DNA from: Tardiphaga sp. P9-11
GTDB taxonomy: Bacteria; Pseudomonadota; Alphaproteobacteria; Rhizobiales; Xanthobacteraceae
NCBI RefSeq assembly: GCF_008329525.1
Contig: NZ_NPKQ01000002.1
Span: 372,001 to 436,000, forward strand
Reading direction: 5' to 3'
DNA: 64,000 nucleotides
Below the pieces are notes generated by a model. It made no database searches and had not been told where the DNA came from. It worked only from the letters and a program-made list of their open reading frames with translations. Shown piece after piece: positions 50,667 through 55,998 of the stretch. Numbering within the stretch: position 1 is the stretch's first letter; each line of letters opens with the position of its first letter. The translations under genes and the position numbers were made by a program.

Positions 50667-50948
50667 ATGTCCTCCACATTCGATCAGGTCGCTACAATCA
50701 TCGCCGAGACTTGCGACATTCCCCGCGACACGATCACGCCGGAAAGCCACGCCATCGACGATCTGGGGATCGACAGCCTCGACTTCCTGGATATCGCTTT
50801 TGCGATCGACAAGGCGTTCGGGATCAAGCTGCCGCTGGAAAAGTGGACCCAGGAGGTCAACGACGGCAAGGCGACCACCGAGCAGTATTTCGTCCTGAAG
50901 AACCTCAGCGCGCGCATCGACGAATTGGTCGCGGCCAAGGGCGCGTAA
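50667..50948 (+). CDS. acpXL: Acyl carrier protein AcpXL for lipid A very-long-chain fatty acid
   Basis: A 93-residue specialised acyl carrier protein. The phosphopantetheine Ser is S37 in [12 protein letters not shown]. Features of AcpXL rather than housekeeping AcpP are the inserted [23 protein letters not shown] segment and the N-terminus [16 protein letters not shown]. It carries the growing 26-30 carbon omega-1-hydroxy chain of rhizobial lipid A. It opens a six-gene cluster; fabZ follows after 9 bases. Confidence 0.95.
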
Positions 50949-50957
50949 CGCCCCGCC

Positions 50958-51431
50958 ATGAACCTCGAATATTTTCACCTGATCGACCGCATCACCGACC
51001 TTAATGTCGGCGAACGGACGATCACGGTCGAAGCGAACGTCCCTGAAAAGAGCACCATCTTCGAGGGCCACTTCCCGGGCTACCCGCTGATGCCCGGCGT
51101 GCTGCTGATCGAGTCGATGGCGCAGACCTCAGGCTGGCTGTTGATCGCGCTGATGAAATTCGAGCGCATGCCGTTCCTCGCCGCGGTGAAGGAAGCCAAG
51201 ATGCGCACCTTCATCACGCCAGGTACGAAGCTGGACATCAACGCCAGCGTGCTGCACGAAGGCGACGGATTCTTCATGACCACGGTCAAGATCAAGGTCG
51301 ACGGCAAGCTGACCTGCAACGCGCAGCTCACTTTCAAGACCGTCCCGTTCCCCCATCCGGATCTGCGCGGGCACATGGACGTTGTGGCCGAGCGTATCGG
51401 ATTCCCCCTACAGGCAATCACCAATGGCTGA
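50958..51431 (+). CDS. fabZXL: 3-hydroxyacyl-ACP dehydratase, FabZ-like (fabZXL)
   Basis: A 157-residue hot-dog-fold dehydratase. The catalytic His is H38 (IFEGHFPGYPLMPGV) and the acidic residue E52 (LLIESMAQ). It dehydrates 3-hydroxyacyl-AcpXL in the elongation cycle of the very-long-chain fatty acid. Its final 8 bases overlap the start of the next gene. The C-terminal half is longer than typical FabZ and lies between AcpXL and the ketosynthases, as in Rhizobium. Confidence 0.94.
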   Translation: MNLEYFHLIDRITDLNVGERTITVEANVPEKSTIFEGHFPGYPLMPGVLLIESMAQTSGWLLIALMKFERMPFLAAVKEAKMRTFITPGTKLDINASVLHEGDGFFMTTVKIKVDGKLTCNAQLTFKTVPFPHPDLRGHMDVVAERIGFPLQAITNG

Positions 51432-52629
51432 AACCCGACCGATGACATCCGAGCCGGTGGAAGCGTGGATCACCGGCATAGGCCTCGCGACGTCATTGGG
51501 CGAAGGCCCCGACGCGCACTGGGATGCGCTGAACAACAAGCGCATCAATGTTGATGAAACCGGCTTTGCACCGAATATCGTGCATCCCCTCGCCCCCGTT
51601 TCCTATGATGCGCAGATTCCCAAGAAGGGCGATCAACGGCAGATGGAAGCCTGGCAGCGGATCGGCACCTATGCCGCCGGCCTCGCGCTCGATTCCGCTG
51701 GCGTCAAAGGCAACAAAGACATCCTGTCGAAGATGGACATGATCGTCGCCGCCGGTGGTGGTGAGCGCGATCTGGCCGTCGATTCCGGCATCCTGAACTC
51801 GGACGGTTACGGCGCCGCGACACCGGGTCTGCTCAACGAAAAGCTGCTCAACGACCTCAGGCCAACGCTATTTCTGGCGCAGCTCTCGAACCTGCTTGCT
51901 GGCAACATCGCCATCGTCCACGGCGTCACCGGCTCATCGCGGACCTTCATGGGCGAGGAAGCTGCTGGAGTCGACGCCGCACGTATCGCGTTGGCACGCA
52001 TCGCCTCAGGCCAGAGCGACATCGCACTGATCGGCGCCGCACATAATGGCGAGCGCAAGGATCTTCTGCTGCTGTACGAATTCGACGATTTCAATCTGAA
52101 GAACAAGTTCGAGACTGTCTGGGCGCGCGAAAACAATTCGGGCTTTGCACTCGGCTCTGCCGGCGCATTCCTCGTAATCGAGTCGAAGGCGCATGCTGAA
52201 GCCCGCGGCGCCAAGCCTCTCGCACGGTTGAAGAGCGTCGTTGCCGATCACGCGCGTCGCAAGACGCCCGGCGAAGTCACGACGGTCCTGCAGAAGCTGT
52301 GGTCGCAGCTCGGCGCAAAGAACGACGCAGCGATCATCACCGGCGCGACTGGTGCGGAGCCAGTGACATCCGAGGAGCGCGCCTTCCTGAAGGATCATGC
52401 CGACGTCGCCATTCGCGGCACCGGTACCCTCTTCGGTCATACGCTTGAAACCCAATTCCCGCTCGGCCTCGGCCTTGCGGCGCTAGCGATCTCGCGCGGT
52501 GCGATGTTTCCGCCGAACGATTCAACCGGCCTTGAGATTGAAAAGTCCGGCAAGCCCACCCAGATTGTCGTGATCGGCGCCGGCCATTGGCGCGGCGAAG
52601 GCATGGCGCTGGTTGAAGCCATTAGTTGA
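51424..52629 (+). CDS. fabF2XL: Ketosynthase-fold protein without active-site Cys (fabF2XL, chain-length-factor-like)
   Basis: A 401-residue ketosynthase-fold protein, recognised from AWITGIGLATSLGEGPDAHW, SGFALGSAGAFLVIESKAHA and TLFGHTLETQFPLG. The translation contains no cysteine at all. The nucleophile region reads VTGSSRTFMGEEAAGVDAAR instead of STACASG. The first catalytic His is also missing (IITGATGAEPV in place of NAHGTGT), while the second (FGHT) remains. It should therefore be a non-catalytic subunit pairing with FabF1XL, as chain-length factors do in type II polyketide synthases. The start at 51424 overlaps fabZXL. Confidence 0.88.
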   Translation: MAETRPMTSEPVEAWITGIGLATSLGEGPDAHWDALNNKRINVDETGFAPNIVHPLAPVSYDAQIPKKGDQRQMEAWQRIGTYAAGLALDSAGVKGNKDILSKMDMIVAAGGGERDLAVDSGILNSDGYGAATPGLLNEKLLNDLRPTLFLAQLSNLLAGNIAIVHGVTGSSRTFMGEEAAGVDAARIALARIASGQSDIALIGAAHNGERKDLLLLYEFDDFNLKNKFETVWARENNSGFALGSAGAFLVIESKAHAEARGAKPLARLKSVVADHARRKTPGEVTTVLQKLWSQLGAKNDAAIITGATGAEPVTSEERAFLKDHADVAIRGTGTLFGHTLETQFPLGLGLAALAISRGAMFPPNDSTGLEIEKSGKPTQIVVIGAGHWRGEGMALVEAIS

Positions 52630-52656: not shown

Positions 52657-53937
52657 ATGACTGCAACGCGCGATAAATTCGGCCGACCGATTGTTGTCGT
52701 CACCGGCATGGGTGTTGCGACATCGCTTGGTGCCGGCAAGGAAGATAATTGGGCAAAGCTCACCGCCGGCGAATCCGGCATCCGCACCATCACGCGCTTT
52801 CCCGTCGACGGCATGAAGACCACGATGGCAGGCACGATCGATTTCGTGCCGGTCGAGCCGTTCTCCTCCACTGATCTCTCCGAGAAACTCGGCGAGATGG
52901 TCACCGAGGAAGCGATTGCGCAGGCCAATATCGGCAGCAAGGGCGACTTCCCTGGCCCGCTGTTCCTCGCCGTTGCTCCTGTTGAGGTCGAGTGGCCGCA
53001 GCGTCAGCTCATCGCAAAGGCTGCGGGCGCCAATAGCGACATCAATTACGACACGCTGCTCCGCGTCGCCGGCGGCGGCCAGTTCGTTCAGTATCATCGC
53101 CGCTTCCTGTTCGGCTCTGTCGCCGATCATCTCGCCGACACCTTCGGCACCAAGGGCTCGCCGATCTCGCTGTCGACCGCCTGCGCCTCTGGCGCGACTG
53201 CGATCCAGCTCGGCGTCGAAGCGATCCGCCGCGGCGAAGCCGATGCGGCGCTGTGCGTCGCCACCGACGGTTCGGTAAACCCGGAAGCACTCATTCGCTT
53301 CTCCCTGCTCTCGGCGCTCTCAACCCATAACGATCCGCCTGAGAAGGCCGTCCGTCCATTCGCCAAGAACCGCGATGGTTTCGTGATGGCCGAAGGCGCT
53401 GGCGCGCTAGTGCTGGAAAGCCTGGAAGCCGCCACTGCGCGTGGCGCGAAGATCCTTGGCATCGTCGCCGGCTGCGGCGAACTCGCGGATTCCTTCCACC
53501 GCACCCGCTCCAGCCCGGACGGCAAGCCCATCATCGGCTGCGTGAACAACGCGCTGGTGGATGCCGGCCTGACGTCGGACCAGATCGACTACATCAACGC
53601 CCACGGCACCGGCACGCCGGAAAACGACAAGATGGAGTATCTCGGCATCTCCAGCGTATTCGGCGAGCGCGCAAAGGAGATCCCGGTCTCGTCGAACAAG
53701 TCCATGGTCGGCCATACTCTCTCCGCCGCGGGCGCCGTCGAAGCAGTGTTCTCGCTGCTAACGCTGGCGCATCAGCGGATTCCCCCGACCATCAATTACG
53801 ATGTGCCCGATCCAGCCATTCCGTTCGACGTGGTTCCCAATACCGCCCGGGATGCACGTGTGACCGCCGTGATGTCGAATTCCTTCGGCTTTGGCGGCCA
53901 GAATGCCTCGCTGATCCTCACCGGCGAGCCCGTTTAG
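52657..53937 (+). CDS. fabF1XL: 3-oxoacyl-ACP synthase for very-long-chain fatty acid (fabF1XL)
   Basis: A 426-residue condensing enzyme with a complete Cys-His-His triad: C176 (STACASGATA), H316 (NAHGTGTPEND) and H353 (SMVGHTLSAAGA). It elongates acyl-AcpXL with malonyl units. It begins 27 bases after the Cys-free paralogue, so the two can assemble as a heterodimer. An insertion around residues 95-150 (NIGSKGDFPG to YHRRFLFG) distinguishes it from housekeeping FabF. Confidence 0.95.
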   Translation: MTATRDKFGRPIVVVTGMGVATSLGAGKEDNWAKLTAGESGIRTITRFPVDGMKTTMAGTIDFVPVEPFSSTDLSEKLGEMVTEEAIAQANIGSKGDFPGPLFLAVAPVEVEWPQRQLIAKAAGANSDINYDTLLRVAGGGQFVQYHRRFLFGSVADHLADTFGTKGSPISLSTACASGATAIQLGVEAIRRGEADAALCVATDGSVNPEALIRFSLLSALSTHNDPPEKAVRPFAKNRDGFVMAEGAGALVLESLEAATARGAKILGIVAGCGELADSFHRTRSSPDGKPIIGCVNNALVDAGLTSDQIDYINAHGTGTPENDKMEYLGISSVFGERAKEIPVSSNKSMVGHTLSAAGAVEAVFSLLTLAHQRIPPTINYDVPDPAIPFDVVPNTARDARVTAVMSNSFGFGGQNASLILTGEPV

Positions 53938-54040: not shown

Positions 54041-55063
54041 ATGCGTGCGCTCAATCTTGTTGCTGATCGTGAGCTCGTCGTCGTCGACGTGCCGCCGCCC
54101 CCGCCGCCCGCTGCCGGCGAAGTACAAATCCGCGTCAAGGCTGTCGGCCTGAACCATATCGACGTCTGGGGCTTCCGCGGCATGGCCTTCGCCAAGCGCA
54201 AGCTGCCGCTGTCGATTGGCGCAGAAGCTTCGGGCGAAATCGCTGCCGTTGGCGAAGGCGTTACCAACCTGAAGCCCGGCCAGAAGGTCGTGATGTATGG
54301 CGCACTGACCTGCGGTCATTGCAAGGCCTGTCAGGAAGGCCGCGACAATTTCTGTGAGAATGTCGGCGGCCTCTATGGCTTCCACATCGATGGCTTCTCA
54401 CGCGAACTGATGAACATGCCGGCACGGCTCGTGATCCCCGTCCCTGACGGCATCAGCTTCCGCGATGCCGCGTGTGCGCCGATCGCGTTCTCGACCGTCC
54501 AGCACATGCTGTTCGACAATGCCAAGCTGCAGCCGGGCGAGACCATTCTCGTTCACGCTGGCGGCTCTGGCATCGGTACCGTCGCGATCAAGATGGCGAA
54601 GAAGATTGGCTGCACCGTCATCACCACCGTGGGCGACGACAGCAAGATCGAAGGCGTCAAGGCGCTCGGCGCCGACCACGTCATCAACTATCGCAAGGAT
54701 CGCTTCGAAGGCGAGACCCGCAAGATCACCAAGAAGAAGGGCGTCGATGTCGTGTTCGAACACGTCGGCGCTGACACCTTCAACGGTTCGCTGCTGGTCA
54801 TGAAGCGCGGCGGCCGCCTGGTCACCTGCGGCTCGACCTCGGGTCCCACAACCACCATCAACCTGATGCAGCTGTTCCAGCAGCAGTACCGCATCTTCGG
54901 TTCGTTCGGCGCCACCATGAAGAACATCAGTGAGAGCCTCGACAAGATGGCCGACGGCATGCTGCCGGTGATCGATACCGAAGTACCGATCAGCGACGTC
55001 GAGACCGCACTGAAGCGGATGGAAACCCGCCAGGTGTTCGGCAAGATCATCGTTCACTTCTGA
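54041..55063 (+). CDS. Zinc-binding alcohol dehydrogenase-like enzyme of the acpXL cluster
   Basis: A 340-residue medium-chain dehydrogenase/reductase. The structural zinc site is intact (CGHCKACQEGRDNFC; C91, C94, C97, C105), and the nucleotide fold is LVHAGGSGIGTVAIK. The catalytic zinc Cys usually in the GxCHTD motif is replaced: KAVGLNHIDVWG has Asn at that place, so it may be an enoyl-type reductase or quinone-reductase-like. In Rhizobium the equivalent cluster gene is thought to act in very-long-chain fatty acid synthesis, possibly as enoyl reductase. GGAG precedes the ATG at 54041. It shares one base with the next gene. Confidence 0.9.
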   Translation: MRALNLVADRELVVVDVPPPPPPAAGEVQIRVKAVGLNHIDVWGFRGMAFAKRKLPLSIGAEASGEIAAVGEGVTNLKPGQKVVMYGALTCGHCKACQEGRDNFCENVGGLYGFHIDGFSRELMNMPARLVIPVPDGISFRDAACAPIAFSTVQHMLFDNAKLQPGETILVHAGGSGIGTVAIKMAKKIGCTVITTVGDDSKIEGVKALGADHVINYRKDRFEGETRKITKKKGVDVVFEHVGADTFNGSLLVMKRGGRLVTCGSTSGPTTTINLMQLFQQQYRIFGSFGATMKNISESLDKMADGMLPVIDTEVPISDVETALKRMETRQVFGKIIVHF

Positions 55064-55998
55064 TGCTCCGCCTGCTGCTTCGCACCAAGGCCCGCATTCG
55101 CGATGCCCTGAAGCCAGCAGGCGACGCCGCCGTCGGTGCGCTGACGATCGCCATCTTGCGCACCACGCGCTATTTCGATCCGGTCAAGACCGCCAACCGG
55201 TTCGGCAAGATCACGCAGCGCATCGGGCCGCTGTTTCGCGAAGACAAGATCGGTCGCGCCAATCTCACAGCTGCCTTCCCCGAGAAGTCACCGGAAGAGA
55301 TCGAGAAGATTCTCGCCGGTGTCTGGGACAATATGGGCCGCGTCGGTGCGGAGTTCGCGCATCTCGACCAGATCTGGGATTACGACCCGGCACATCCGAC
55401 CAAGCCCAGCAATGTCGAATTCTCGGCGCGGACGGCGGAAATTTTCGATCAGCTGCGCGATGACGGCAGGCCGGCGCTGATTTTCGCGAGCCATCTCGGC
55501 AATTGGGAAATTCCAGCACTTGCAGCCGTTGCTCACGGCCTCGACGCAGCCGTGTTGTACCGCCGGCCGAACAGTGCCGCTGCTGACCGCGCCATCCATC
55601 AGACGCGCGCGATCAATATGGGTAACCTCATTCCGGCCAGCCATGACGCGCCGCTCAAGCTCGCGCATGCACTGAATGAGGGCAAGCACGTCGCCATGCT
55701 GGTGGATCAATGGTTCACCAATGGCGTTCCGGTGGATTTCTTCGGTCGCAAGACCAATGCCAATCCGATGCTGGCGCGGCTGCTGCGCCAGGTGGATTGC
55801 CCGATCCATGGCGTTCGTATCATCCGCCTGCCCCATCATCGTTTCCGGATCGAGGTCTCCGAAGAGGTGAAACCGGTGCGCGATCCCAACGGCAAGGTCG
55901 ACGTTCAGGGCACCATGCAGGCGGTGACGTCGGTGCTGGAAGGCTGGATCCGGGAATATCCCGAGCAGTGGCTGTGGCTGCACCGCAGGTGGCGGTAG
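55063..55998 (+). CDS. lpxXL: Lipid A very-long-chain acyltransferase LpxXL
   Basis: A 311-residue LpxL/HtrB-family acyltransferase. The catalytic HX4E is H144-E149 in FASHLGNWEIP; further conserved segments are VAMLVDQWFTNGVPVDFFGR and NPMLARLL. It transfers the very-long-chain fatty acid from AcpXL onto lipid A at the inner membrane. The ATG overlaps the preceding stop by one base (TGATG), giving tight coupling to the elongation genes. It ends 3 bases before the stop of a gene on the opposite strand. Confidence 0.95.
   Translation: MLRLLLRTKARIRDALKPAGDAAVGALTIAILRTTRYFDPVKTANRFGKITQRIGPLFREDKIGRANLTAAFPEKSPEEIEKILAGVWDNMGRVGAEFAHLDQIWDYDPAHPTKPSNVEFSARTAEIFDQLRDDGRPALIFASHLGNWEIPALAAVAHGLDAAVLYRRPNSAAADRAIHQTRAINMGNLIPASHDAPLKLAHALNEGKHVAMLVDQWFTNGVPVDFFGRKTNANPMLARLLRQVDCPIHGVRIIRLPHHRFRIEVSEEVKPVRDPNGKVDVQGTMQAVTSVLEGWIREYPEQWLWLHRRWR

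What the first reader, a model, noticed from the sequence alone, without database searches (positions are those of the whole stretch)
51424..52629. Ketosynthase of the lipid A acyl cluster contains no cysteine: a chain-length-factor-like subunit
The translated protein has no Cys anywhere, and the first catalytic His is gone, while the fold and the second His are kept. The next gene encodes a complete Cys-His-His ketosynthase. This pattern matches KS/chain-length-factor heterodimers of type II polyketide synthases, here applied to very-long-chain fatty acid synthesis, where a partner controlling chain length of 26-30 carbons would make sense.
Basis: partly seen in the sequence, partly recalled or inferred. 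Interest (0 to 1): 0.62.

Follow-up and report, generated by a model that had tools for sequence, protein, structure and literature searches.

The report
Catalytically dead ketosynthase in lipid A cluster
A gene that annotation calls an active fatty-acid-building enzyme has lost key catalytic residues in every relative aligned here, yet nearly always travels with an intact twin, which suggests that it is the silent half of a two-part enzyme making the very long fatty acid of the outer membrane.

Summary
The protein at 51424-52629 (FabF2XL, NCBIfam PRK06519) has no Cys. The Cys, first His and Lys of a FabF active site are replaced by Glu179, Thr309 and Gly334; His339 remains. The next gene (FabF1XL) is a complete ketosynthase. 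Having no Cys at all is near chance (P 0.04), but the site change is not: in 161 aligned FabF2XL the Cys column is Glu 160, Asp 1; first His and Lys are never kept, the second His in 147. Low dN/dS (0.04-0.14) and a published Agrobacterium insertion mutant without very-long-chain acid, partly complemented, argue against decay. In two genome draws FabF1XL was never found without FabF2XL. The strongest conservation lies not at the catalytic loops but in segments matching the KS acyl-pocket and (recalled) dimer-interface regions. Best reading: a non-catalytic, chain-length-factor-like partner needed by FabF1XL. Heterodimer and length control are inferred: AlphaFold was inconclusive, and the mutant loses the acid instead of changing its length. 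Descent from polyketide chain-length factors is unresolved. In the open-licence papers searched I saw no statement of this.

The parts
51424..52629 (+). fabF2XL: catalytically dead ketosynthase homologue, 401 aa, NCBIfam NF005084/PRK06519
   Evidence: PF00109 47.6 bits; 614.4 bits, cut-off 320
51736..51795 (+). FabF2XL residues 105-124 DMIVAAGGGERDLAVDSGIL; G113, R115, D116, D120 invariant in 161 of 161; matches the loop that bears chain-length residues F109/T112/F116 of actinorhodin CLF (residue-level alignment ambiguous)
51856..51927 (+). FabF2XL residues 145-168 LRPTLFLAQLSNLLAGNIAIVHGV, the most conserved stretch (two 12-residue windows, 0.943 and 0.912); matches FabF 129-152
51931..51966 (+). 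FabF2XL residues 170-181 GSSRTFMGEEAA, leading to and covering the former Cys site; matches FabF 154-165
51958..51960 (+). codon of Glu179 at the catalytic Cys position (FabF C163)
52348..52350 (+). codon of Thr309 at the first catalytic His position (FabF H303)
52423..52425 (+). codon of Gly334 at the catalytic Lys position (FabF K335)
52438..52440 (+). codon of His339, the retained second His (FabF H340)
52657..53937 (+). fabF1XL: intact ketosynthase, presumed catalytic partner (C176, H316, K348, H353), NCBIfam NF005076/PRK06501
   Evidence: (781.6 bits, cut-off 629)
50667..50948 (+). acpXL, 93-aa acyl carrier protein of the cluster
   Evidence: position and tblastn relatives upstream of fabF2XL; named from its place in the published cluster order; no Pfam test in the right frame was made
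50958..51431 (+). fabZXL, dehydratase; its end overlaps the fabF2XL start by 8 bases
   Evidence: PF07977 71.8 bits
54041..55063 (+). adhA2XL, zinc-binding dehydrogenase of the cluster
55063..55998 (+). lpxXL, lipid A acyltransferase of the cluster
   Evidence: NF005120, 453.2 bits, cut-off 273

Best explanation
FabF2XL is a non-catalytic ketosynthase homologue that serves as the obligatory partner of FabF1XL, working like the chain-length factor of type II polyketide synthases. FabF1XL carries the acyl chain on Cys176 and condenses it with malonyl-AcpXL. FabF2XL takes the place of the second identical subunit of a FabF homodimer and supplies the far wall of the acyl tunnel at the interface, so that the tunnel can take chains far longer than C18, up to C26-C30. 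Shown here: loss of catalytic residues in all aligned relatives, purifying selection, pairing, and conservation centred on non-catalytic segments. From print: the gene is needed for the acid. Inferred: physical heterodimer, tunnel geometry, effect on length.
For: Active site lost in 161 of 161 aligned FabF2XL at Cys, first His and Lys, and kept in FabF1XL (Cys in 159 of 160, one X; His, Lys, His in 160 of 160). Order draw: 66 of 249 genomes have FabF2XL and the same 66 have FabF1XL. Class draw: 21 and 20 of 387, the odd one (G437) being cut by a contig end; four positive genomes are in both draws. All 5 order-draw genomes with two FabF2XL matches have two FabF1XL matches. FabF1XL lies directly downstream at 164 of 168 FabF2XL places, 3 others being cut by contig ends. 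dN/dS 0.037-0.135 over four pairs. The three most conserved FabF2XL windows are 145-156, 157-168 and 170-181; the four most conserved FabF1XL windows are the loops of both His, the Cys and the Phe400 gate. FabF I108 lies in the segment matching FabF2XL 105-116 and is named a gating residue of the acyl pocket (legend passage, PMC7138838); CLF residues in this loop act in chain length (passage, PMC4383371). That FabF 129-161 is dimer interface is recalled, not computed here. Fold: KS, Z up to 28.6 (from a modest model). Print: A. fabrum fabF2XL insertion mutant has no VLCFA, partly restored by the gene in trans (PMC11901934, section 2.2 read).
Against: AlphaFold of the joined pair gave pTM 0.51 and mean pLDDT 61 with a shallow alignment: no support for a defined heterodimer, and no refutation. 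The mutant shows absence of VLCFA, not a changed length, and its insertion may be polar on fabF1XL. One intact FabF2XL (L153) has no FabF1XL within the 5 kb downstream. Two alignments of the chain-length loop disagree: one search puts CLF F109 and T112 opposite R115 and A118, one search puts T112 and F116 opposite G113 and L117; in neither are the CLF residues kept. By profile, FabF2XL is as close to FabF/FabB as to CLFs.
Confidence: 0.74

Rival explanations
1. FabF2XL is an enzyme with a changed active residue (invariant Glu178 and near-invariant Glu179) doing another reaction on AcpXL-bound acids, such as hydrolysis or transfer, and does not need FabF1XL physically.
For: The GEE motif is almost invariant (E178 161 of 161, E179 160 of 161); the retained second His is conserved above the protein's average (0.78 against a mean of 0.625); the mutant lacks the product altogether.
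Against: The columns of the first His, Lys335, Glu349 and Phe400 are at or below average conservation (0.63, 0.60, 0.46, 0.59), and the second His is missing in 14 of 161; two Streptomyces CLFs have a similar SEQ motif at this site; pairing with FabF1XL.
Confidence: 0.13
2. FabF2XL is a malonyl-AcpXL decarboxylase (KSQ-like) that primes or feeds the pathway.
For: KSQ domains also lack the Cys (recalled). Structures of FabF C163Q are among the listed fold matches (ranks 20 and 22), which tells little.
Against: Decarboxylation in KSQ is thought to need both His (recalled); the first His is absent in 161 of 161, the second in 14, the Lys in all. The site is Glu or Asp, never Gln.
Confidence: 0.05
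3. FabF2XL is a homodimeric acyl-AcpXL binding or scaffolding protein of the elongation complex, not the other half of the ketosynthase.
For: Its cluster encodes a dedicated carrier protein and other enzymes; the AlphaFold pair model gave no defined arrangement.
Against: The strongest conservation lies in segments matching the KS pocket and (recalled) dimer interface; FabF1XL is doubled in 5 of 5 genomes where FabF2XL is.
Confidence: 0.06
4. Decaying paralogue or sequence error.
For: Loss of catalytic residues.
Against: dN/dS 0.037-0.135, the same replacement in 160 of 161 sequences, mutant phenotype and partial complementation, failure to obtain mutants in Bradyrhizobium ORS278 (passage in PMC5613085).
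Confidence: 0.01

Closest known systems
Chain-length factor (KS-beta) of type II polyketide synthases, e.g. actinorhodin CLF (1tqy_B), AntDE (6smo), ishigamide Iga11-Iga12
   Same: KS fold without a working active site, encoded next to a complete KS; Cys replaced within a similar motif (SEQAGG versus GEEAAG); first His lost
   Different: Glu not Gln at the Cys site; second His mostly kept where the two aligned Streptomyces CLFs have Arg; Lys lost where those two keep it; chain-length loop residues differ; no shared clade shown; fatty acid, not polyketide, pathway
KS-CLF didomain of polyunsaturated fatty acid synthases (PfaC)
   Same: KS/CLF pair used to make a long fatty acid (passages in PMC13311796)
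   Different: There the two are domains of a megasynthase; here discrete proteins of a type II system whose product is found saturated in lipid A (C28:0-(27OH)); sequences not compared here
ApeO-ApeC of aryl polyene synthesis
   Same: Discrete KS and inactive partner in a fatty-acid-like pathway; cavity lined by both subunits (section read, PMC8358021)
   Different: The E. coli CFT073 protein annotated 'chain length factor' in that cluster (taken as ApeC from recall) has 240 aa; FabF2XL keeps nearly the full KS length
FabF2XL of the published rhizobial acpXL-lpxXL clusters
   Same: Same gene, order and family
   Different: The passages seen name it a fatty acid elongation protein or beta-ketoacyl-ACP synthase; the main text of PMC11901934 holds none of 'cysteine', 'active site', 'heterodimer', 'chain length factor'

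Membership tests
FabF2XL family (NCBIfam NF005084 / PRK06519) | profile score over curated cut-off | tested here: met
   614.4 bits, cut-off 320
Active beta-ketoacyl-ACP synthase (FabF type) | Cys-His-His triad plus Lys | tested here: not met
   Cys, first His and Lys absent in the window's protein and in 161 of 161 aligned
Chain-length factor | ketosynthase fold | tested here: met
   Pfam PF00109; VIA-align Z up to 28.6 with a modest model, pLDDT 58
Chain-length factor | catalytic Cys lost | tested here: met
   Glu 160, Asp 1 of 161
Chain-length factor | Gln at the Cys site, as in aromatic CLFs | tested here: not met
   Glu/Asp; some known CLFs also depart from Gln (recalled), so this feature defines only the aromatic class
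Chain-length factor | encoded with a complete KS partner | tested here: met
   164 of 168 places, 3 cut by contig ends, 1 exception
Chain-length factor | obligate KS heterodimer | tested here: inconclusive
   joined-pair model pTM 0.51 with shallow alignment
Chain-length factor | controls product chain length | not testable with these tools
   published mutant has no VLCFA at all
Chain-length factor | common descent with polyketide CLFs | tested here: inconclusive
   tree of 55 rows (17 of the 161 FabF2XL) joins them at 93/92, unstarred, but holding FabF2XL with FabF1XL fits as well, p-AU 0.543; mean hhalign score FAS 182, CLF 175, KS-alpha 153, FabF1XL 120 over 6 subsamples
KSQ decarboxylase | Gln for Cys with both His kept (recalled definition) | tested here: not met
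   Glu/Asp at the site, first His absent

The most novel reading that the evidence does not exclude
FabF2XL is a molecular ruler of its own kind: an inactive ketosynthase half that opens the homodimer tunnel of a discrete type II fatty acid synthase to C26-C30 and closes it with an invariant charged loop (G113, R115, D116, D120). It would have arisen within fatty acid synthesis independently of polyketide chain-length factors, and be required wherever Alphaproteobacteria make lipid A very-long-chain acids with this cluster.
Probability: 0.33. Interest if true: 0.72.

Novelty: new variant of a known kind. Interest (0 to 1): 0.52.

Why it matters
How rhizobia and their relatives set the 26-30 carbon length of the lipid A acid is not explained in the papers seen here, where the two genes are named as two ketosynthases or elongation proteins. 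If one is a silent partner, the pathway has one elongating heterodimer, the annotation of FabF2XL as a synthase is wrong family-wide, and chain length becomes testable by changing a handful of residues in a non-catalytic protein. It would extend the KS/chain-length-factor principle from polyketides and polyunsaturated megasynthases to a discrete fatty acid synthase of the outer membrane.

Tried and rejected
AlphaFold on FabF2XL alone (28 rows, pLDDT 58, pTM 0.67) and on the FabF2XL-FabF1XL read-through (78 rows, pLDDT 61, pTM 0.51): the rows came from close relatives only, so both are shallow; no claim on the dimer rests on them. Foldseek and VIA-align give the KS fold but do not separate FabF from KS/CLF chains. 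Tree: the first run held a wrong row (an antisense frame taken as a ketosynthase) and joined FabF2XL to CLFs at 97/94, starred; the corrected run gives 93/92, unstarred, and after the placement was not kept as a claim. A simple 'open glycine gate' reading of G111-G113 was dropped because two alignments of that loop disagree (with 84, and 95). Coevolution analysis was not run: the effective number of sequences at 80% identity is 55 (FabF2XL) and 40 (FabF1XL). The acpXL piece given to Pfam was out of frame, so its lack of a match means nothing. A phylum draw found matches over the family cut-off in 44 of 397 genomes, all listed as of the window's class or nearer; the best matches of the other 42 genomes are at most 91.1 bits and look like ordinary ketosynthases (not aligned).

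Literature: ten searches of an open-licence PubMed Central library. Several listings were capped (30 of 526 papers, 40 of 101, 15 of 37, 8 of 64, 15 of 173), and of listed papers I saw title and start of abstract only, apart from those whose passages or sections are cited in this report. None of those says that FabF2XL is inactive or a chain-length factor. Four papers hold 'fabF2XL'; I read passages of all four and one section of one. Subscription papers are not covered.

Full report
What is there. The window lies in a 6.16-Mb genome in 30 contigs; its FabF2XL is 98% identical to that of Tardiphaga robiniae LMG 26467. The finding sits in a cluster acpXL (50667-50948), fabZXL (50958-51431), fabF2XL (51424-52629), fabF1XL (52657-53937), adhA2XL (54041-55063), lpxXL (55063-55998), all on the + strand. 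[quoted passage not shown] without adhA2XL in Bradyrhizobium ORS278, PMC5613085). The fabF2XL start overlaps the fabZXL end by 8 bases.

Checking the observation. FabF2XL is 401 aa without Cys. Alone this is near chance: P = 0.04 at the window's Cys frequency, and 7 of 30 long ORFs of the window also lack Cys. Among FabF2XL under 62% identity to the window's only 7 of 73 lack all Cys. What is not chance is the active site. Against E. coli FabF, the Cys position holds Glu179, the first His Thr309, the Lys Gly334, and the second His is His339. In FabF2XL the Cys column is Glu 160, Asp 1; the first His column Thr 112, Ser 38, Cys 7, Asn 3, Gly 1; Lys never; second His 147 of 161. FabF1XL keeps Cys in 159 of 160 (one X) and His, Lys, His in 160 of 160.

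It is maintained. dN/dS between the window and four relatives is 0.037-0.135 for FabF2XL and 0.023-0.116 for FabF1XL. In print, an A. fabrum fabF2XL insertion mutant has no VLCFA in lipid A, and supplying fabF2XL in trans restores part of it (PMC11901934 section 2.2). The insertion lies upstream of fabF1XL in the same transcript, so polarity may contribute, but the partial complementation says that FabF2XL itself is needed. In Bradyrhizobium ORS278, mutants in fabF2XL, fabF1XL, fabZXL and acpXL could not be obtained (passage, PMC5613085).

It is paired. Of 249 genomes drawn from the window's order, 66 have FabF2XL and the same 66 have FabF1XL, all over the curated cut-offs. Of 387 drawn from the class, 21 have FabF2XL (20 over the cut-off) and 20 FabF1XL (12 over the cut-off); the exception, G437, has FabF2XL running off a contig end on its downstream side. 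Four positive genomes are in both draws. Limits were E 1e-60 for FabF2XL and 1e-100 for FabF1XL. Five order-draw genomes with two FabF2XL matches each have two FabF1XL matches, some of them fragments. FabF1XL follows FabF2XL directly at 164 of 168 places (near-identical loci not removed); three are cut by contig ends. L153 is a real exception, with other genes downstream, in a fragmented genome that has two FabF1XL on other contigs. In a phylum draw, matches over the family cut-off were found in 44 of 397 genomes, none outside the window's class.

Where constraint lies. The four most conserved 12-residue windows of FabF1XL are the loops of the first His, the Phe400 gate, the Cys and the second His. 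Those of FabF2XL are 145-156, 157-168, 170-181 and 64-75, followed by 78-89, 105-116 and 17-28. In FabF2XL the columns of the first His, Lys, Glu349 and Phe400 are at or below the mean conservation of 0.625 (0.63, 0.60, 0.46, 0.59); the second His (0.78) and the Cys site (0.97, as Glu) are above it. Segments 105-116 and 145-168 match FabF 101-109 and 129-152. FabF I108, in the first, is named a gating residue of the acyl pocket (legend passage, PMC7138838). That FabF 129-161 forms the dimer interface is recalled, not computed here. In the actinorhodin KS/CLF, F109, T112 and F116 of the CLF were shown by mutation to act in chain length, with F140 and L143 of the KS among further residues proposed (passage, PMC4383371). 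In 1tqy_B these three are chain positions 117, 120 and 124 (offset 8). Their FabF2XL counterparts are ambiguous: one search puts F109 and T112 opposite R115 and A118, while hhalign puts T112 and F116 opposite G113 and L117 (GQREL against GERDL). Either way they fall in a loop with invariant G113, R115, D116 and D120, and the CLF residues are not kept.

Mechanism. The most likely reading is a FabF1XL-FabF2XL heterodimer: FabF1XL catalyses, FabF2XL completes the dimer and forms the distal tunnel wall so that C26-C30 chains fit. Published KS/CLF pairs are obligate heterodimers whose interface channel is mainly responsible for the number of extensions (passages, PMC12664062), and in ApeO-ApeC the cavity is lined by both subunits (section read, PMC8358021). 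Shown: dead site, conservation, pairing. From print: requirement for the acid. Inferred: binding, tunnel, length. I tried to test binding by AlphaFold on the in-frame read-through of both genes; pTM was 0.51 and confidence was modest even in FabF1XL, probably because the alignment was shallow, so this is inconclusive.

Relationship to known families. FabF2XL has the ketosynthase fold. Its profile scores FabF/FabB and CLF profiles about equally (199 and 190; means 182 and 175 over six subsamples), KS-alpha lower (161; 153) and FabF1XL lowest (126; 120). By sequence its best PDB matches are FabF chains; the actinorhodin CLF comes lower (59 bits against 102). A tree of 55 ketosynthases joins it to CLFs at 93/92, below the trust limit, over a stem of 2.3 changes per column; grouping it with FabF1XL fits as well (p-AU 0.543). 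It works like a CLF; whether it is one by descent is open, and an independent origin is possible.

Novelty. Pseudo-KS partners are a known kind, including in polyunsaturated fatty acid synthases (passages, PMC13311796). In the listings and passages seen I found no statement that FabF2XL is inactive or CLF-like; the passages call it a fatty acid elongation protein or beta-ketoacyl-ACP synthase, and NCBIfam names it beta-ketoacyl-ACP synthase. The searched library lacks most subscription papers, and listings were capped. I rate it a new variant of a known kind, interest 0.52.

Noticed in passing
L138, L139, L144, L143/L169, and G043 (L146, L153): Five genomes of the order draw carry two FabF2XL and two FabF1XL matches. 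In L138, L139 and L144 one pair has no acpXL or fabZXL beside it, and a second, diverged pair lies about 6-7.5 kb downstream behind its own acpXL-fabZXL; this might reflect two very-long-chain acids in one organism.
   Followed up: partly
FabF1XL column at FabF F133: The FabF1XL position matching FabF F133 is very variable (Tyr, Met, Leu, Trp, Phe; conservation 0.25) while the matching FabF2XL position is nearly always Leu (156 of 161). It may track lineage-specific chain length.
   Followed up: no
51424-51431: The fabF2XL start codon lies inside the last codons of fabZXL (8-base overlap), suggesting translational coupling.
   Followed up: no
L104, L146 and nine other loci: In 11 of 158 loci where acpXL and both ketosynthases were detected (164 loci tallied), tblastn found no fabZXL between acpXL and fabF2XL, so another dehydratase may serve there.
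   Followed up: no
51424-52629: NCBIfam PRK06519 names this family beta-ketoacyl-ACP synthase as an equivalog, although no member aligned here has the catalytic Cys, first His or Lys; the name may mislead pathway reconstructions.
   Followed up: yes
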